From Levilactobacillus humaensis (GTDB lineage: Bacteria > Bacillota > Bacilli > Lactobacillales > Lactobacillaceae): DNA of 64,000 bases. The position numbers and the translations under genes are program-made. The stretch lies in the NCBI RefSeq assembly GCF_024345185.1, contig NZ_BROB01000017.1:1-64000 (forward strand). The letters are read 5' to 3'. Under the pieces are notes generated by a model that was not told where the DNA came from, ran no database searches, and was given only the letters and a program-made list of their open reading frames with translations. Positions 56,897 to 63,880 of this stretch are shown here, piece by piece (positions within the stretch are counted from its first letter, which is position 1; each line of letters begins with the position of its first letter).

Positions 56897-56920
56897 CCCA
56901 AACATCTCCTCTGAAGGTTA

Positions 56921-57197
56921 AAAAAATCGTCCTTATGCTTAAACATAAGGACGATTTACTCGCGGTACCACCTTGATTTACACTGAACTCACGCCCAGTG
57001 CCTCCGTAACTTCTGTTGCCAAAAGTCGGAAGCGGTAACGTGCTTCAATCCGGGTAGTCAGCTTGCACCGACTACTAGCAACCAGGCTCATCTTCGTTAT
57101 ACCGTTGTAAGCCACCTTTTCAGCTACCGGTGGTCTCTGCGTCTTAGCGGGTACGACTACTCTTCCTGGTAATGCGTTCCTGTATATTTCTAACTTG
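56921..57197 (-). promoter_or_regulatory. T-box riboswitch, probable Met specifier
   Basis: Minus-strand leader with T-box AAGGTGGTACCGCG (56961-56974) and terminator AAATCGTCCTTATG/CATAAGGACGATTT plus T-run. Stem I CCAGG/CCTGG; the internal loop has the usual AGUA on its 5' side and AAGAUGAG on its 3' side, with AUG (57089-57091) as the probable specifier. Confidence 0.9.
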
Positions 57198-57203
57198 GCT
57201 CTA

Positions 57204-57232
57204 ATAATAGTCGCGCAATTTCGCTTTGTCAA
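57204..57232 (-). promoter_or_regulatory. Consensus promoter of oppA
   Basis: Minus-strand TTGACA (57227-57232), 17 bases, TATTAT (57204-57209). Confidence 0.87.
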
Positions 57233-57307
57233 CCAGAAGTTTTAAAAAGTTAAACCGCGGTGTGACGGGGATTATTAGCATATAGTAGAATGATTGGCGG
57301 GGGATTT

Positions 57308-57431
57308 GATTATACGCCAACTGTATAATCCGATAGATGTATCTCAAGATAAATTTGAATATTTATGCGTTATAAAATGCCAACAATAAGCCACTTCAGT
57401 TGTCGACGGATCCACGCCATTCTCGTATACT
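57308..57431 (+). promoter_or_regulatory. Wadjet operon upstream region
   Basis: A perfect inverted repeat GATTATAC (57308-57315) / GTATAATC (57323-57330) lies ~100 bases before a TATACT -10 box (57426-57431) that gives a short leader to jetA. No other gene lies between the T-box promoter and jetA. Confidence 0.5.
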
Positions 57432-57474
57432 TAGAGCAAGGTTTCTGCCGGGAGGGATAATCATCGCAATTGAA

Positions 57475-58968
57475 TTGAATCCGTTACTTAAAAACTTACT
57501 ATTAGCCACTAATCTAGGCCTGAGTCGAGCACACCCACTGGCTGGTTGGTCAATCTTGACAATACTTTACCGTGATAGCACGGTGGGTGGTGAACCCATT
57601 ACGTTAGGTTATTTGGCTCGGAAATATAACAGTACATACCTAAACACGGATGAACAACCCCTGAAAGATGATGTCCTCAAGCGAATATTAGACAACATCA
57701 GTACGAAGGCGAAACTAATTGAAGTGTCGCCGCAAAAGGTTCGGGTGCGGATGAAGAGTGGTAATTATCATACGCAGCAATCTTACGTTTATCAGATTAC
57801 GAGTAGTGGGATCGAATATCTTTCGGCGATGCAACGGGTGGTAGATGCTGATAATACTGTTGCGGCGAATATTACGCGGATTTCTGAATATTGTCAGTTG
57901 GTCAATCGCCTCTCAAAACCGATTCTAAAGGCTGATAGCACGCAATTATACAATGATTTTCAGAACATGGTCTCAGCCTATAACGATGTGATGAAAGGGA
58001 TGCATAAACTGGACAGTGATCTTAGTGAATTAGCCAACAATCTGGCCTTCAATCATGGCGGGGTGGCAGCGATCCACCTCCAGACAATGTTGAAGGAAAA
58101 GGCGATTCCGGCCTTTTCTAAAATGTTGGATCAGGGTCCACAGCTCCAAGCCTTGGCTAACTCAGAAACTTTTAGTACGCGAGTGGCACACAGTCAACAG
58201 GGGAATGACGATCTAGATACAGCGCGGGCTGTGGGCGACGAGAGTAAATTATTGGTGAGATTTAATCGGGCAGAAGCGTATGTTCAGCGGCAGCTTCACC
58301 GGCTATCTGCCAGTTTTGATCCGAGTACGAGTGCGATTGATAACAGCTTGGATACGGTGTATCTGTTGTTTCAAACAATCTTAAGTGCCATTCGACTCTT
58401 AGGCCAAGAGTATGATCATATTCAGCAACAATCTGTCGATATTAAAGAACTTACGGCCGAAATTGACCAATTATTAACCAGTTATCAAACCATCAAGATT
58501 CCTGAAGAAATTCCTCAACATTTGGCACAAGACCGGCCGCTTGCAGAGCCGGCGGATTTACTTCAGGCTGGTGAGATTGCACCAGTTGGATATGTGGCAA
58601 CTAGTAAGCCCCAGGTTAAATTAACTGCGGCCGATAACCCCACAGTTGTCGGAACCACCGATACTGGAGAGACCCAGGCGCAGCAGGCGTTGGCGGAATT
58701 TAAACGGCTAGTCATGCGCGATGACAATCATGGTATTGTCAATCATGATTTGGAATTAACGTCGTTGCAAGCACGAGATGAAGTTGTTCGCTTATATGCC
58801 GCGACTGCCTATGACTATGACACGAACTTTGCCTTGTTCGGACGACCGCTGTATCGCGTGGCAACGCTGGCAGGTGGTGCAATTAACTTACATTGCACGG
58901 GTGAGGATTATCAAGTGACATTGCCGAATTGCTTTGAATTTTGGTTTGACGAGGAGCGGGTAAAATGA
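57475..58968 (+). CDS. jetA: Wadjet JetA (MukF/kleisin-like)
   Basis: ~497 residues, start uncertain. A strong GGGAGGG (57450-57456) is followed in frame only by ATA, ATC, ATC and ATT before the first normal codon, TTG 57475, which is spaced too far; a rare start (ATC 57463 or ATT 57469) is possible. N-terminal winged-helix region (RAHPLAGWSILTILYRD), central helical/coiled region, C-terminal conserved FALFGRPLYRVATLAGGAINLHCTG. It is the kleisin-type subunit that joins JetC heads. Identification rests on operon order and fold pattern with JetB-D. Confidence 0.82.
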   Translation: MNPLLKNLLLATNLGLSRAHPLAGWSILTILYRDSTVGGEPITLGYLARKYNSTYLNTDEQPLKDDVLKRILDNISTKAKLIEVSPQKVRVRMKSGNYHTQQSYVYQITSSGIEYLSAMQRVVDADNTVAANITRISEYCQLVNRLSKPILKADSTQLYNDFQNMVSAYNDVMKGMHKLDSDLSELANNLAFNHGGVAAIHLQTMLKEKAIPAFSKMLDQGPQLQALANSETFSTRVAHSQQGNDDLDTARAVGDESKLLVRFNRAEAYVQRQLHRLSASFDPSTSAIDNSLDTVYLLFQTILSAIRLLGQEYDHIQQQSVDIKELTAEIDQLLTSYQTIKIPEEIPQHLAQDRPLAEPADLLQAGEIAPVGYVATSKPQVKLTAADNPTVVGTTDTGETQAQQALAEFKRLVMRDDNHGIVNHDLELTSLQARDEVVRLYAATAYDYDTNFALFGRPLYRVATLAGGAINLHCTGEDYQVTLPNCFEFWFDEERVK

Positions 58969-59963
58969 AAGATTTAAGCGGATCCGAACGATTCATTATC
59001 AATGATCTATTTGATTCTGGTATTTTTACCAGCACCGTTACCGATCAGACGTCACAGGCCAAAGCGGATGCGATTGTGGCGTTACGACGCCCAGCGACGC
59101 AGCAACGGTTGCGTTCCTTTCTGGTTGACTTAGTGGGTGTTGGGCCGACTAATTTCCAAGAAAATTTAATCTTTTTGTCTGGTGAAAAGAGTCTGCCAGC
59201 TGAGACAACCCACGTGTTACTAGCAACGATCAAAGCGGTCATTAATTTACCAGAACTTCAAAATACCCAGGCCGATCGGGTAGTTGCCGTGCGAACCGTG
59301 GTTCGGCAGGTGCATAGTGAGGTTGTCGAACTAAATGAGAAAGAAATCCGGAATCAAATCATTGCCTTATTTGTTGACCGATTTGGTTTATTTATTGAAG
59401 ATGAACCGGAACAAATCCCTGAAGATCAAGCACAAGAAATCGAAGAATATTGGAGTGTTAGCCCAGACTTTGCTGCGGTTGCCCAATGCCTAGTGAATCG
59501 GATACGAACAATGACTGATCGGCCGACGCCATCAACGATCCAGCAAATTAATCAGACCTTGCTTAATCGCTATTACTTGTCTGCGGCTTCCTATCTTTGG
59601 CCAGAGCTCGTGAAAAATAAAGAAGTGATTGCCGCACAGTGGCAACAAACCGATCGTTTTGTCTTAGAGTGTGGGGATAATTATGCAGTATTATTGGATA
59701 AAAAACGTTCGCCAAGTACGGCCAAACCATTTGTGATTGCGATTGGTGTGGCACAGTCGCTAGGCATTGGCATACCTAGTGCTCAGTTGCTGGATCGTAT
59801 TCATAATGTGGCCGAACGCCTAATACCGGGCTATCCCATCAATGTTAGTTTGGTCAAGGAAGCCTTATACGTCAACGGTTTAGCACTTGAACGAGATGGG
59901 TATGTTGTGGCAACACCGTTGGTTAAGCGCTTTGGAATTAAACAGGCGGAAAGAGAGGCATAG
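58965..59963 (+). CDS. jetB: Wadjet JetB (MukE/KITE-like)
   Basis: 332 residues. Overlaps the jetA stop as ATGA. Helical, winged-helix-rich (SGSERFIINDLFDSGIF at the start; LVKEALYVNGLALERDGYVVATPLVKRFG at the end). In Wadjet, JetB is the KITE subunit that binds JetA. The family assignment comes from gene order; the sequence itself is weakly conserved. Confidence 0.8.
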   Translation: MKDLSGSERFIINDLFDSGIFTSTVTDQTSQAKADAIVALRRPATQQRLRSFLVDLVGVGPTNFQENLIFLSGEKSLPAETTHVLLATIKAVINLPELQNTQADRVVAVRTVVRQVHSEVVELNEKEIRNQIIALFVDRFGLFIEDEPEQIPEDQAQEIEEYWSVSPDFAAVAQCLVNRIRTMTDRPTPSTIQQINQTLLNRYYLSAASYLWPELVKNKEVIAAQWQQTDRFVLECGDNYAVLLDKKRSPSTAKPFVIAIGVAQSLGIGIPSAQLLDRIHNVAERLIPGYPINVSLVKEALYVNGLALERDGYVVATPLVKRFGIKQAEREA

Positions 59964-59964
59964 T

Positions 59965-62900
59965 ATGACTATTCAAGAACACCTCGTACCGGTAAGTTTT
60001 CATCTTCGTAACTTTGACAAATACCGGAAACTAGATCTGCCAGCAGCAGAGAATGGAAATTTAACACTTATTGGTGAAAATGCGGCCGGAAAGACAACTT
60101 TGGCAAACTGTTTCTTTCCAATGTTAATTGATGGGTCAATTGCGACGCCATCATTCAATTCGGCCAAAGGAACGGATAAACTCGATCGAACAACCGGTCC
60201 GCGAAACAGTGCTCAGGATGCACGGACCTTCAATAGTATGTTACTCGACTGGGGTCCTGGTGCCATGAAGGTTCGGACTGGGTACAGCTATCTTTACCTA
60301 CGTTCCAAGCGACGTCAGGTGATCTTAGGAATTGGGGCTTACCGAAATGTCAGTGAAAAGCGGCAACCGACTTGGTGGTTTGTCGGTATGACGACTGATG
60401 TGGCAACCCCCCTGACAGTGGTGACGACTGACGAAACCGGTGCTAGCTTAAACTTATCTGATTTTCTCAGCGTCAATCAGAACTTAGGCGAAGACTTACA
60501 TGTTTTCAAAACAGTTGAAGAATACCACGCCTTTGTGGCCGGGCAAGTGTATGGGTTTAGTGACAAGTCATTGACCAAGTTAGCTTCAGTTTATCGGTTG
60601 TTGGCATCACCAATTTTAACGGGTGGTGATGTCCGGTTTACCCCTATCCGGGAAGCTTTAAAAAATGCCCAGGAGGGAATTGATTCTCAAATCATTCAAG
60701 CTGTTGCGTCGGCGCAGCGTGAGGTCAACCGAACGAAAGGGAGTTTGGATCGGGTTCGGCGAGCACAAGAACGGCTTCGAAGAATGAAGAAAGAAATATT
60801 CTGGCGAAATTTGAATCGGATTGAGGAGAAAACGTTACGTCCATACAGTGCCAGTCAACATCAATACAAGGAAAACTTGGAGCAATGTGAACAGGCTAAG
60901 CAGAGAATTGGAAAACTTGAACATGAACTAGAGCGGCTGGCAGTGGCTTTGAAGGATGCTGCCACTGAGTTAGATGGTCTGCGCCAAGAGAAGGCTAACC
61001 AAGCCAACATTGTGGAGCAACGTCAGCAGTATGAGAATCGGCTATTAGATTTAGAGCGTCGGTTAAAACAGTTTCGGAAACAGAAGCAGCGGTTAGCGGT
61101 ATTGGAGGATCAAGCGACGGCGCTGGCGGAACAGTTGTCACAGTTAAAGACTCGGCAAGAGCAGTTAAATCAAGAACAACTACAGCCCCTGTTGTCCTAT
61201 CTGGCAACACATGCGGCAGAGATGCCCGAATTAACGAAAGTGGTTACCGAAGTTGATGCCAGCGTTTTATTAGAAAAGTTAACGCAATACATTCGCGAAC
61301 AGCGACGGGCGAGTGAACGTTACCAAGAAGATGAACGGGCCAAGCAACATGCTAGCCAAGATGTTCGGATCGTTATGACGATGCGTGAAACACTTGATGG
61401 GCGAATTGACCAGCGGGTGAACGCCATACAAGCGCGCACACGGAAGGACTTACATCAGGATAATCAAGAAGTTCATGATGCCGGGGCGGCAAAAATGGAT
61501 GCTGAATTTCAGCAATTTGTAAAGCATCAAGAGCAACTCTTACAGGCCCATGCGGATTTGAAGGTTAATCTGACTGAAGCAACGCGGTTGGATGAGCTCA
61601 CAGTTCGTGAGCAAAAGCTGACTGAGGTTCTCGCCGATTTAGCAGCGGTTAAACAAGATCAGCGGCGACAAGCCGAGAAACAATCGGATGTCATCGGTCG
61701 TATCCAAGAAATTCAAGCGGATACAGAAACTGATTTTGATGAACAGCGGGTGACAGCTGAGATTGCGGAGACACAACGACGTCACGACGCGTTGGTCATT
61801 GATAATAGTATTGACGAAAAGATTCGGCTGGCTGACCTCAAGCAAAGCAAAGTGGAAAAGCAACAGCGAGAGTTTTTGACCCAAAAGGCTGCGGATGAAG
61901 GAAAAATTGCGACGATCCGGATTCAAATGGATCAACAACAGAAGACGTTATCAGAATTGAAAAAGAGTATCGAGACAGCCTTAGAAGCTTTGGCGCCCTA
62001 TCAGCCTGAACAAGTCCAGCTGACGACGGTTGAGAAAGTCTTGGCCTTTGTCCAACAACATGCAAGTGAGGTTCGGAATAATCGAATCGATGATTTGACC
62101 AGTCAGATCAGCAAGCTTATTCACCGAAATAATCAAGATGGTATCGACAGAAATGCCTTAGATACTGTGTTCGAAGAACGTGGTCACAGTGCTGAAGCAA
62201 GTGCCATGCGTCAAAATCGCTCTGTACTTGAAAAGGGATTGACCGTGGTGGCCTTTGATATTAATCAGTCCATAGCACTGATGGTGGCAGATGAAAAACA
62301 TATTGAGAAGGCCTTAGAAGTCTTACAATCTGGGAATGACACGGCTCAGACTTACTACCTTAATTCGGCGGTTATCACAATTGCAGCTCAGTATCGGTTG
62401 ATTACTGGCTACAATCGGATGTTGGGTGAGGGGCTGACGCACGAGCAGAATATTAAGCTGAAAGTTTCGTTAACACCCACTAGTGTGTCCACCCAGGTTA
62501 TTGAGGAGGCCTGCAATCCCAGTTTGACTGCTCGTCCTGAATTGGAAGCGGAAGTTCAAAATCGGTTGCAAAAGCTAGCGAATGACTTATCGATTGCTGA
62601 CGATGACGAGGCCTTCATGGAGAAGGCTCAGGAGATGTTAGATACGCGGCAGTGGTCAGATTTTAAGGTGTTGATTAAACGGCGGCAAAGTGATGAAAAC
62701 CATTATGAAGAAGTGAACGATAATTTTGTTAAGTCTGGGGGATCAGGAGCGGAAAAAGCCCAGGCAATGGTGTTACCACTACTGTTAGTGCCCAAGATGG
62801 TTTTAGAGCAAGCTTCCCAAAAGGACGCCCCACATTTAGTCATGTTTGATGAATTTGCTGACAAGTTGGATCCTGAGACAGCGAAGTCTTTTGCTAAGAC

Positions 62901-63090
62901 GATTGCCCGGTTTGGCTTTAATTTCATCGCAACCATGCCAGGTGGCGCACAAAATAAAATCTTAGCCGATGGGGTGGATAATATTGCCTACGAAGTTATT
63001 TCACCAAGCTTGAAAAAGGATAACCAGTTCCATCTGAATAAAGTTCGTCAGGCATTAGTTTGGGGGCCAGCACATGAGTCCGTATCGTAA
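59965..63090 (+). CDS. jetC: Wadjet JetC (SMC/MukB-like ATPase)
   Basis: 1041 residues. The ATG at 59965 lies one base after the jetB stop; GAGAGG is upstream. Walker A LIGENAAGKTTLANCFFPML (~residues 36-54). Long coiled coils span ~240-560 and ~580-690. The C-terminal signature VKSGGSGAEKAQAM (~922-935) and Walker B LVMFDEFADKLD (~958) complete the ATPase head. It extrudes DNA loops with ATP to detect small circular DNA. Overlaps jetD by 17 bases. Confidence 0.93.
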   Translation: MTIQEHLVPVSFHLRNFDKYRKLDLPAAENGNLTLIGENAAGKTTLANCFFPMLIDGSIATPSFNSAKGTDKLDRTTGPRNSAQDARTFNSMLLDWGPGAMKVRTGYSYLYLRSKRRQVILGIGAYRNVSEKRQPTWWFVGMTTDVATPLTVVTTDETGASLNLSDFLSVNQNLGEDLHVFKTVEEYHAFVAGQVYGFSDKSLTKLASVYRLLASPILTGGDVRFTPIREALKNAQEGIDSQIIQAVASAQREVNRTKGSLDRVRRAQERLRRMKKEIFWRNLNRIEEKTLRPYSASQHQYKENLEQCEQAKQRIGKLEHELERLAVALKDAATELDGLRQEKANQANIVEQRQQYENRLLDLERRLKQFRKQKQRLAVLEDQATALAEQLSQLKTRQEQLNQEQLQPLLSYLATHAAEMPELTKVVTEVDASVLLEKLTQYIREQRRASERYQEDERAKQHASQDVRIVMTMRETLDGRIDQRVNAIQARTRKDLHQDNQEVHDAGAAKMDAEFQQFVKHQEQLLQAHADLKVNLTEATRLDELTVREQKLTEVLADLAAVKQDQRRQAEKQSDVIGRIQEIQADTETDFDEQRVTAEIAETQRRHDALVIDNSIDEKIRLADLKQSKVEKQQREFLTQKAADEGKIATIRIQMDQQQKTLSELKKSIETALEALAPYQPEQVQLTTVEKVLAFVQQHASEVRNNRIDDLTSQISKLIHRNNQDGIDRNALDTVFEERGHSAEASAMRQNRSVLEKGLTVVAFDINQSIALMVADEKHIEKALEVLQSGNDTAQTYYLNSAVITIAAQYRLITGYNRMLGEGLTHEQNIKLKVSLTPTSVSTQVIEEACNPSLTARPELEAEVQNRLQKLANDLSIADDDEAFMEKAQEMLDTRQWSDFKVLIKRRQSDENHYEEVNDNFVKSGGSGAEKAQAMVLPLLLVPKMVLEQASQKDAPHLVMFDEFADKLDPETAKSFAKTIARFGFNFIATMPGGAQNKILADGVDNIAYEVISPSLKKDNQFHLNKVRQALVWGPAHESVS

Positions 63091-63880
63091 AGCTTATGAG
63101 TCGTCGACGGGGCTAACAGCACCGAAGGAGGCGGCACAACTGGATGGCTTGTTTCAGCGAATTGTACGTGGTGATCGACTACCACCACGTGGGCAGCAGG
63201 CTGTAGATGCTGGACTAACGGCGCACAGCTTGAATGATCGTCGAGAAAATCCGCAGCTTTTTGATTATTACCAGTGGGTCTTGGCAAATGTTCTAACAGA
63301 TTATCCGGTAAACGAATTGTCGGCAAAGCTGATTGAAATGGCGTTCACATGTATGTCAATATTTAAGACAGATTTACCACAACCACTCACACTCAATCCT
63401 TGGCAGGTTCCGGCGATGCAAGATTATCCCTTAGAAACGAAGAAGGCTGTGGTTATCGAGAATAATGGCGTTTTCGTTTGGCTGGCCACGTTACATCCAG
63501 AGTGGCCTTTGATTAATCAAGCTGGTAATGACCTTAACTCGGCGTACATCCAGTTAATGCAGTGTCTGGAGTTGCGCGGGGTCCAGCTTACTTATCTAGG
63601 GGACTTGGATAGTCGTGGTATTCAAATGGCGGACAGCCTATTTCGTCAGCTATCACGAACGTCGATTGAAACCTTTACGGCCATTCAATCACCTGCAAAT
63701 GTCAGTTATTGGCTGACTTTGAAGGGAAAGAAGGATGTTAGACGTACACGTCGATTAGCGGTGAAGACGCCCATTCTTTGTGAAGAATTGGACTCAATCC
63801 GGTTGTTTGGTAAATTTGTTGAGCAAGAGCAACTGGTTTCAAACTATGAACGGCTGATTGAAGAGTGGCTAATTGAGTAA
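63074..63880 (+). CDS. jetD: Wadjet JetD (Toprim/topoVI-like nuclease)
   Basis: 268 residues. The Toprim active site is visible: E129 in VVIENNGVF, and D177/D179 in TYLGDLDSRGIQMADSLF. This matches the DUF2399/Spo11-TopoVIA-like Toprim fold that makes JetD cut plasmid DNA once JetABC has extruded it. It is shorter than type I JetD (~400 residues), so this is another Wadjet subtype. Starts inside jetC. Confidence 0.9.
   Translation: MSPYRKAYESSTGLTAPKEAAQLDGLFQRIVRGDRLPPRGQQAVDAGLTAHSLNDRRENPQLFDYYQWVLANVLTDYPVNELSAKLIEMAFTCMSIFKTDLPQPLTLNPWQVPAMQDYPLETKKAVVIENNGVFVWLATLHPEWPLINQAGNDLNSAYIQLMQCLELRGVQLTYLGDLDSRGIQMADSLFRQLSRTSIETFTAIQSPANVSYWLTLKGKKDVRRTRRLAVKTPILCEELDSIRLFGKFVEQEQLVSNYERLIEEWLIE

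What the first reader, a model, noticed from the sequence alone, without database searches (positions are those of the whole stretch)
57475..63880. Complete four-gene Wadjet (JetABCD) operon of a non-type-I form
JetC has full SMC head motifs. JetD has a Toprim E..DxD site but is only 268 residues, with a DUF2399-like core. JetA does not resemble the DUF3375 form. Gene order A-B-C-D with overlaps is intact. Wadjet cleaves small circular DNA, so the strain may resist plasmid transformation.
Basis: partly seen in the sequence, partly recalled or inferred. Interest (0 to 1): 0.6.

Follow-up and report, generated by a model that had tools for sequence, protein, structure and literature searches.

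The report
Compact Wadjet anti-plasmid defence operon
Four neighbouring genes of a food lactobacillus look like a slimmed-down relative of Wadjet, a DNA-reeling machine that finds and cuts small circular plasmids; it forms its own branch beside the known types, and its first gene seems to begin with an unusual, weak start signal that many related species keep.

Summary
The four-gene operon is real and intact, and it is a Wadjet-type system: JetC is an SMC ATPase and JetD a Toprim nuclease by sequence; JetA and JetB resemble kleisin and KITE subunits only by low-confidence predicted folds. It is not type I or III, nor canonical type II: JetA and JetB match no known model, JetC (1041 aa, type II about 1380) forms its own clade beside type II, and JetD (268 aa, type II about 440) lacks the N-terminal third. 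In draws of relatives this compact form was patchy and seen only in Lactobacillaceae. Comparative data support function: Rep_3 plasmid replicons occur in 6 of 38 genomes with an intact operon, 9 of 12 with a broken one, 113 of 347 others.

The codon aligned with ATG in relatives is ATC (24) or ATT (1) in 25 of 53 loci, mostly behind a strong Shine-Dalgarno site; infC of the same genome also lacks a canonical start codon. A poor, IF3-discriminated start may throttle the operon. Plasmid cleavage and AUC initiation are inferred and need bench tests.

The parts
57426..57431 (+). TATACT -10-like element of the presumed jetA promoter (weak -35-like TCGACG at 57403)
   Evidence: 9 of 12 matches; the number of such sites in the region is not above shuffles. 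TATACT or TATAAT lies 33-57 nt before the ATC in 17 of the 19 ATC loci examined (19 of 25 ATC/ATT loci were given).
57450..57456 (+). Shine-Dalgarno sequence GGGAGGG, 6 nt before the ATC
   Evidence: Read; duplex energy with the anti-SD -12.8 kcal/mol.
57463..57465 (+). Proposed AUC start codon of jetA
   Evidence: Aligned with ATG/GTG/TTG of relatives; ATC or ATT in 25 of 53 loci; in 12 Levilactobacillus-type loci the codon is ATC every time and the codons after it are under moderate purifying selection.
   Evidence: No significant HMM match. Fold of a low-confidence model: MukBEF/MukEF chains in ranks 1-3, a chain of E. coli JetABCD rank 4; N. vireti Wadjet-II chain E first, Z 13.4.
58965..59963 (+). 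jetB, KITE-like subunit, 332 aa
   Evidence: No significant HMM match. Best Foldseek match N. vireti Wadjet-II chain D, E 2.1e-3, prob 0.96; by VIA-align P. aeruginosa and E. coli JetABC chains first (Z 9.2 to 9.0, 59-63 residues), N. vireti chain D only Z 6.0 at rank 44.
59965..63090 (+). jetC, SMC ATPase, 1041 aa
   Evidence: PADLOC JetC2 1e-24; TIGR02680 77.7 bits against a cut-off of 462.85; only PDB match at E 0.01 is N. vireti JetC 9qe0, 1.5e-19.
60073..60096 (+). Walker A of JetC (GENAAGKT, residues 37-44)
   Evidence: Alignment A4.
62734..62757 (+). ABC signature of JetC (SGGSGAEK, residues 924-931)
   Evidence: Alignment A4.
62836..62856 (+). Walker B of JetC (LVMFDEF, residues 958-964)
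   Evidence: Alignment A4; Pfam SbcC_Walker_B 3.7e-9.
63074..63880 (+). jetD, short Toprim nuclease, 268 aa
   Evidence: Pfam DUF2399 2e-10 and JetD_C 6.5e-5, both over cut-off; PADLOC JetD2 2.9e-13 over residues 104-194 only.
63458..63460 (+). JetD E129 (ENNGVF), presumed metal ligand
   Evidence: Invariant in 25 of 25 and 48 of 48.
63602..63610 (+). JetD D177-L-D179 (GDLDSRG), presumed metal ligands
   Evidence: Both Asp invariant in 25 of 25 and 48 of 48.

Best explanation
A chromosomal Wadjet-type plasmid-restriction operon of a compact lineage of Lactobacillaceae, sister to type II. Inferred mechanism by homology: JetC dimers (SMC motor), bridged by the JetA kleisin with the JetB KITE, load on DNA and reel it in as a loop; on a small circle the two motors of a dimeric complex collide, and the JetD Toprim dimer then cuts the DNA; linear DNA and the large chromosome escape. 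Shown here: gene content, motifs, family placement, patchy distribution, and the shortage of Rep_3 plasmid replicons where the operon is intact. Inferred: loop extrusion, cleavage, and low expression set by an AUC start codon of jetA.
For: SMC and Toprim-nuclease homology. Kleisin-like and KITE-like folds for JetA and JetB. A-B-C-D whole in 38 of 397 family genomes. JetC clade 100/99, sister to type II 98/82. Rep_3 replicons: intact 6/38, broken 9/12, others 113/347; intact against broken p = 0.0003, genus-stratified p = 0.003. Rep_1 rolling-circle replicons: broken 3/12, intact 1/38, and that one a 102-aa fragment, p = 0.04. No match in 72,556 plasmid records at E 1e-5 nor in the viral-contig scans.
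Against: No biochemical or genetic test of this lineage was found in the papers searched. Six of 38 genomes with an intact operon still hold a Rep_3 replicon, and Rep_2 goes the other way (2 of 38 intact, 0 of 12 broken). Replicon data are correlative, on mostly draft genomes, with only 12 broken cases; intact against others is weak (p = 0.04). A genome whose jetC is deleted (G049) was missed by the JetC search and has no Rep_3; with it, 9 of 13 broken, p = 0.0007. JetA and JetB folds rest on models with mean pLDDT of 51 and 53. The JetD Toprim tree does not place the clade beside type II, although profile comparison does. Two genomes have A, B and C but no D.
Confidence: 0.85

Rival explanations
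1. A MukBEF/MksBEF-like chromosome condensin in which the adjacent jetD is incidental.
For: JetA's best Foldseek matches are chains of MukBEF and MukE-MukF entries; two genomes of one genus keep A, B and C without D.
Against: Of 41 loci with whole A, B and C, 39 have jetD in the same place, and the catalytic residues are invariant in 48 of 48 JetD. Presence is patchy, 17 of 35 in the genus, unlike an essential condensin. JetC is nearest type II Wadjet JetC.
Confidence: 0.07
2. A fast-diverging branch inside canonical type II Wadjet rather than a separate type.
For: JetC sister to type II, JetD profile best with type II, JetA and JetB fold matches to the N. vireti type II complex, same gene order.
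Against: JetA and JetB score at the reversed-sequence background against type II profiles, JetC and JetD are far shorter, and the ten type II JetC form a clade without it, 100/99. Only ten type II operons, all from one phylum, were sampled.
Confidence: 0.3
3. Anti-phage rather than anti-plasmid defence.
Against: The Rep_3 and Rep_1 pattern points to plasmids and known Wadjet acts on circular plasmids.
Confidence: 0.05
4. jetA starts at a canonical codon (for example TTG 57475) and the conserved ATC is only an isoleucine codon or leader base.
For: A canonical codon lies in frame at -7 in several loci, TTG in the window; purifying selection on the ten codons is moderate (pN/pS 0.47, control frames 0.65 and 2.30). 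Some loci have a GTG at -14 inside the SD, or a canonical codon at -18 or further up. Three of the 25 (L042, L180, L182) have an ATG two codons downstream.
Against: 14 of the 25 have no in-frame ATG/GTG/TTG from codon -25 to -8 relative to the motif; six of them (L004, L005, L046, L051, L169, L170) have none between the upstream in-frame stop and the conserved motif. The SD is spaced for the ATC; the aligned codon is ATG/GTG/TTG in 23 other loci; jetB and jetD show 0 of 47 and 0 of 48 ATC/ATT at their start columns, a control that is blind to 1 and 2 rows with a gap there.
Confidence: 0.12

Closest known systems
Wadjet type II (JetABCD of Neobacillus vireti, PDB 9qe0/9qe1)
   Same: Gene order A-B-C-D; nearest JetC by tree and only PDB sequence match; nearest JetD profile; best JetB match by Foldseek and best JetA match by Z.
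   Different: JetA2 and JetB2 models do not match; JetC about 340 aa shorter, most of it in the middle third between the heads (type II columns 413-878 against residues 404-563); JetD about 170 aa shorter, with the first ~130 residues missing.
Wadjet type I (E. coli GF4-3, P. aeruginosa PA14, MksBEFG of C. glutamicum)
   Same: Order A-B-C-D, SMC + kleisin + KITE + Toprim nuclease, catalytic E...DxD.
   Different: No JetA1 or JetB1 match; JetB 332 against about 210 aa; JetC outside the type I clade.
Wadjet type III
   Same: A fairly short JetD (340-397 aa in the ten sampled) and the Toprim site.
   Different: Order D-A-B-C, JetC about 1480 aa; JetC profile match hardly better than the reversed control.
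Conserved non-canonical start codons (infC AUU/AUA; S. aureus cvfC1 AUU and ccpN AUA, PMC13009471, passages read)
   Same: Conserved start other than AUG/GUG/UUG behind a strong SD; infC of this genome also lacks a canonical start.
   Different: AUC rather than AUU/AUA; a defence gene that opens an operon of overlapping or adjacent genes; repeated swaps with canonical codons across the family.

Membership tests
Wadjet (JetABCD) in the broad sense | SMC-type ATPase with Walker A, signature and Walker B | tested here: met
Wadjet (JetABCD) in the broad sense | Toprim nuclease JetD with E...DxD | tested here: met
Wadjet (JetABCD) in the broad sense | Kleisin (JetA) and KITE (JetB) | tested here: inconclusive
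   No significant sequence match. Folds of low-confidence models rank MukF-like/JetA-like and JetB/MukE-like chains first.
Wadjet (JetABCD) in the broad sense | All four genes together in one operon | tested here: met
   whole in 38 of 397 genomes.
Wadjet (JetABCD) in the broad sense | Restriction or cleavage of circular plasmids | not testable with these tools
   Only correlative replicon counts.
Wadjet type I | JetA1 (DUF5716/DUF3375) and JetB1 (DUF4194) match | tested here: not met
   the same library does name the reference type I operon L145.
Wadjet type II | JetA2 (DUF2397) and JetB2 (DUF2398) match | tested here: not met
   No PADLOC hit at E 1, no TIGR hit; profile comparison at background; positive control L135 hits both.
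Wadjet type II | JetC within the type II clade | tested here: not met
   Sister to, not within, ten type II JetC; the program warns that long branches meet.
Wadjet type II | JetD2 match | tested here: inconclusive
   2.9e-13 over residues 104-194 only; Toprim tree does not join it to type II.
Wadjet type III | Gene order D-A-B-C with JetA3/JetB3 | tested here: not met
   Order A-B-C-D; no JetA3/JetB3 match.
MukBEF/MksBEF condensin | No JetD nuclease in the operon | tested here: not met
   jetD overlaps jetC by 17 nt.
Genes with a conserved non-canonical start codon | Conserved ATC/ATT/ATA at the homologous start with a fitting SD and no canonical start nearby | tested here: met
   14 of the 25 ATC/ATT loci have no canonical codon from -25 to -8.
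Genes with a conserved non-canonical start codon | Initiation at that codon shown by ribosome profiling, peptide or reporter | not testable with these tools
   No such data at hand.

The most novel reading that the evidence does not exclude
A fourth Wadjet type: a minimal lactobacillar SMC nuclease with its own kleisin/KITE pair, shortened arms and a JetD cut down to little more than Toprim, whose first gene has a conserved AUC start codon, so that translation of the whole operon of overlapping genes is kept low and tied to initiation factor IF3, the way infC controls itself. Defence dosage would then respond to the state of the translation machinery.
Probability: 0.45. Interest if true: 0.7.

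Novelty: new variant of a known kind. Interest (0 to 1): 0.52.

Why it matters
It widens the Wadjet family by a lineage whose JetA and JetB no PADLOC, Pfam or NCBIfam model recognises, and gives natural comparative evidence (Rep_3 plasmid replicons mainly where the operon is broken) that such systems restrict plasmids in their own hosts. The lineage's JetD, typically about 270 residues, is shorter than each of the type I-III JetD compared here (340 to 568), useful for asking which part is needed for activation. If jetA starts at AUC, gene callers misplace its start, and there is a directly testable link between translation initiation control and plasmid immunity. For lactobacillus engineering it names a likely barrier to transformation.

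Tried and rejected
Profile comparison was first run in global mode by mistake and repeated as local with reversed-sequence controls; only the latter is used for significance, global alignments only for lengths. JetC against type III (92.8%) was hardly better than its reversed control (91.1%), so it is not counted. The reversed controls of JetC against types I and II reached 23% and 39%, a coiled-coil background. One type I reference row, the 568-aa D of L166, is probably not a JetD (branch length 10); it stayed in the type I profile and tree. The MecI winged-helix match to the JetD N-terminus (E 0.036) is not significant and is only a hint that a winged helix remains. Viral-contig scans found nothing, so the AlphaFold alignments stayed shallow: window plus five Levilactobacillus loci. 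VIA-align warns that long helices can give Z near 13 by arrangement alone; JetA's best rows (13.4, 13.3) have rmsd of 22.6 and 35.8. I suspected a T-box RNA upstream (56.9-57.2 kb); Rfam gives no match at gathering scores, so it is not claimed. The promoter scan is not above shuffles as a count. An early start-codon listing printed only 12 of 17 genus loci because its motif was too strict, the first SD score was crude, and the first jetB control picked a wrong column; replaced. In one search two rows (L056, L067) were mis-anchored; searches show ATG for both. Of 55 loci given, two (L037, L080) gave no jetA start and were dropped; L076 and L077, the two most divergent, were left out beforehand. 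One of the 53 JetC hits (G261) is a weak coiled-coil match and is counted among the others. Classes and replicons were combined by hand; one search recounted the intact class by script (39 of 50 loci, one of them outside the 397). A jetC-less remnant (G049) was found only afterwards and is counted separately; more such cases may hide among the others. Rep_2 (PF01719) goes the other way: 2 of 38 intact, 0 of 12 broken, both on contigs that reach beyond 68 and 122 kb. Paper searches for Wadjet with Lactobacillus and JetC, with start codon and JetA, for lactobacillus genera with Wadjet and PADLOC (15 of 764 listed) and for AUC start codon with IF3 listed no report of this lineage or of its start codon by title or abstract; most subscription papers are not in that library.
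Full report
WHAT IS THERE. Four ORFs run head to tail on the + strand: jetA (ends 58968), jetB 58965-59963, jetC 59965-63090, jetD 63074-63880, with an ATGA overlap, a 1-nt gap and a 17-nt overlap. Before them is a TATACT element and a GGGAGGG Shine-Dalgarno sequence; after them come ordinary chromosomal genes, among them an AEC-type transporter, a 2-hydroxyacid dehydrogenase and a LepA/TypA-type GTPase by my reading of the ORFs, not by a search. The genome is a draft of 2.37 Mb; the nearest named relatives of JetC are five Levilactobacillus species at 57-59% identity.

FAMILY. PADLOC gives JetC2 (1e-24) for C and JetD2 (2.9e-13, Toprim part) for D, nothing for A and B at E 1. Pfam gives SbcC_Walker_B for C, DUF2399 and JetD_C for D, nothing over cut-off for A and B. 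NCBIfam gives TIGR02680 for C and TIGR02679 for D, both far under their cut-offs. Reference operons drawn from the same phylum (12 type I, 10 type II, 10 type III; one truncated type III dropped) show A/B/C/D of about 480/210/1120/425, 495/393/1380/440 and 510/244/1480/350 aa, against about 500/335/1040/270 here; one operon of each type was checked in whole or part with PADLOC and got the expected names. Local profile comparison: C with type II 99.7% (E 1e-25), with type I 99.4%; D with type II 98.5%, with I and III 95.6%; A and B at most 1.5% with any family of any type, as for reversed controls. Known types also match each other poorly in A and B: I-II 38% and 28%, I-III 52% and 0.4%, II-III 0.3% and 0.8%. 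So A and B here are at least as separate as the known types are. In a tree of JetC heads the compact form is one clade (15 rows, 100/99), sister to type II (98/82), apart from I and III; the program warns of long branches. The JetD Toprim tree, less well supported, does not put it beside type II.

FOLDS. With six-sequence alignments, AlphaFold models are poor (mean pLDDT 50.8 for A, 52.8 for B) but their best matches are specific. The outputs name entries, not chains; I infer the subunit from chain length. JetA: chains of MukBEF and MukE-MukF entries in ranks 1-3 (E 9e-5 to 5e-4), a chain of the E. coli JetABCD core rank 4; by VIA-align, chain E of N. vireti Wadjet-II first with Z 13.4 (270 residues, rmsd 22.6) and 13.3 (360 residues, rmsd 35.8), next rows winged-helix regulators at 11.8. 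JetB: N. vireti Wadjet-II chain D first (E 2.1e-3), then P. aeruginosa JetABC, Nse1-Nse3-Nse4 and MukE-MukF among cullins; by VIA-align P. aeruginosa and E. coli JetABC chains first (Z 9.2 to 9.0 over 59-63 residues), N. vireti chain D at Z 6.0, rank 44. JetC's only PDB sequence match is N. vireti JetC.

WHAT IS SHORTER. In a global profile alignment most of the roughly 340 residues that JetC lacks fall between residues 404 and 563, opposite type II columns 413-878, that is in the middle third between the heads, where coiled-coil arm and hinge lie (the domain reading is inference). JetD starts opposite type II residue 131 and type I residue 140, so it lacks the first ~130 residues; E129, D177, D179 and the two Glu of a VEQE motif are invariant in 48 of 48. 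Called ORFs of these 48 JetD span 234-352 aa, median 271, some with doubtful starts.

DISTRIBUTION. JetC relatives: 53 of 397 Lactobacillaceae genomes, 13 of 40 genera by the tool's tally. By length rules set, before any plasmid search, 38 have all four genes whole, 12 are broken or remnants, 2 have A, B and C without D, 1 is a chance coiled-coil match. JetA: 17 of 35 genomes of the genus. A JetD profile over 246 genomes of the order rings in 17: four are the compact form, all Lactobacillaceae; 13 others sit in open frames of 351-454 aa and match only in the Toprim part. One of the four, G049, has jetC deleted, with jetB fused in frame to jetD. None in viral contigs or among 72,556 plasmid records at E 1e-5 (records near this genome may be left out there).

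FUNCTION. If the operon restricts plasmids, replicons should be rarer where it is intact. Rep_3 (PF01051): 6 of 38 intact, 9 of 12 broken, 113 of 347 others. Intact against broken p = 0.0003; genus-stratified permutation p = 0.003; intact against others p = 0.04; contig numbers do not differ (medians 63.5 and 70). With G049 as broken, 9 of 13, p = 0.0007. Rep_1 (PF01446): 1 of 38 intact (a 102-aa fragment) and 3 of 12 broken, p = 0.04. Rep_2 (PF01719): 2 of 38 and 0 of 12, the other way. All three together: 8 of 38 and 10 of 12, p = 0.0002. The p values are uncorrected. The window's genome has none of the three. This is correlative, but it is what known Wadjet would leave behind: in the literature JetABC is thought to extrude circular DNA and JetD cuts it, sparing linear and large DNA (PMC10586767, passages read; PMC12287153 and PMC12647877, passages read). 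The last describes nvJET, a type II complex with one JetB per JetA and a channel-less hinge.

THE START OF jetA. Aligned on the conserved LLLA..LG motif, codon -11 is ATG, GTG or TTG in 23 of 53 loci, ATC in 24, ATT in 1, and five start elsewhere. In 14 of the 25 there is no in-frame ATG/GTG/TTG between -25 and -8 (five of these have one further up, at -26 to -33); in six there is none at all between the upstream stop and the motif. Three others (L042, L180, L182) are ambiguous because ATG lies two codons on. An in-frame stop closes the frame at -14 to -24 in 14 of the 25. In 12 Levilactobacillus-type loci the codon is ATC every time; pN/pS is 0.90 in the 11 codons before it, 0.47 in the ten after it, 0.13 further on; the two other frames of those ten codons give 0.65 and 2.30. 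SD duplex energies average -14.5 for ATC/ATT and -11.9 for canonical loci, p = 0.035 uncorrected; L051 is weak at -6.4. On a quick JetA tree of 51 rows, ATC/ATT and canonical starts need ten changes, at least seven forced by well-supported branches. Controls: jetB 0 of 47 and jetD 0 of 48 with ATC/ATT at the start column (1 and 2 rows gapped there); jetC 1 of 43 with ATT, 7 gapped, not examined further. These controls start from ORFs called with ATG/GTG/TTG and lean towards them. The same genome's infC reads TGGAGGTGGATTACC-ATA-GCA with no canonical codon in frame among the codons printed around it, as S. aureus infC uses AUA; there, AUU and AUA starts gave about 10% of AUG output in poor medium (PMC13009471, passages read). 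In E. coli, IF3 discriminates against its own AUU start (PMC9410913, passages read). Because B, C and D follow with overlapping or adjacent starts, weak initiation at jetA could throttle the whole operon; that step is inference.

VERDICT. Observation confirmed, interpretation supported and sharpened: a compact, lactobacillar, type-II-related Wadjet with unrecognised JetA and JetB, a trimmed JetC and JetD, and probably an AUC-initiated first gene. DefenseFinder calls Wadjet in 9.38% of 1344 lactic acid bacteria genomes (PMC13304284, passages read); whether that includes this form I could not tell, so I do not claim that it escapes all detection.

Noticed in passing
window 57463-57465; L002-L006, L036, L038, L039, L041, L045, L046 (ATT), L049-L051, L063, L064, L078, L169, L170, L177, L178: jetA appears to start at a conserved AUC (once AUU) codon; ORF callers limited to ATG/GTG/TTG place its start wrongly.
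   Followed up: yes
L184 around position 1500 (infC of the same genome): infC starts at a non-canonical codon, probably ATA (ATT two codons earlier is possible), like jetA.
   Followed up: partly
L051 and L053 (genomes G106 and G009, one genus): Full-length jetA, jetB and jetC with no jetD beside them and no JetD profile match in either genome (the same profile does ring in other genomes): possibly an orphan condensin left after loss of the nuclease.
   Followed up: partly
L188 661-2199 (genome G049): jetC is deleted and jetB runs in frame into jetD, giving a 512-aa fusion: a clean inactivating deletion, or conceivably a new fused protein.
   Followed up: partly
L036, L037, L041, L056, L060, L062, L077, L078, L080: Broken copies of the operon; 7 of these 9 genomes carry a Rep_3 plasmid replicon.
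   Followed up: yes
L076 and L077 (genomes G221 and G295): A more distant compact operon (JetC 25-28% identical to the window's) in the same family, a deeper sub-branch.
   Followed up: partly
window 56900-57250: Leader-like region on the minus strand before an oligopeptide-binding-like protein gene, which I took for a T-box; no Rfam match at gathering scores.
   Followed up: partly
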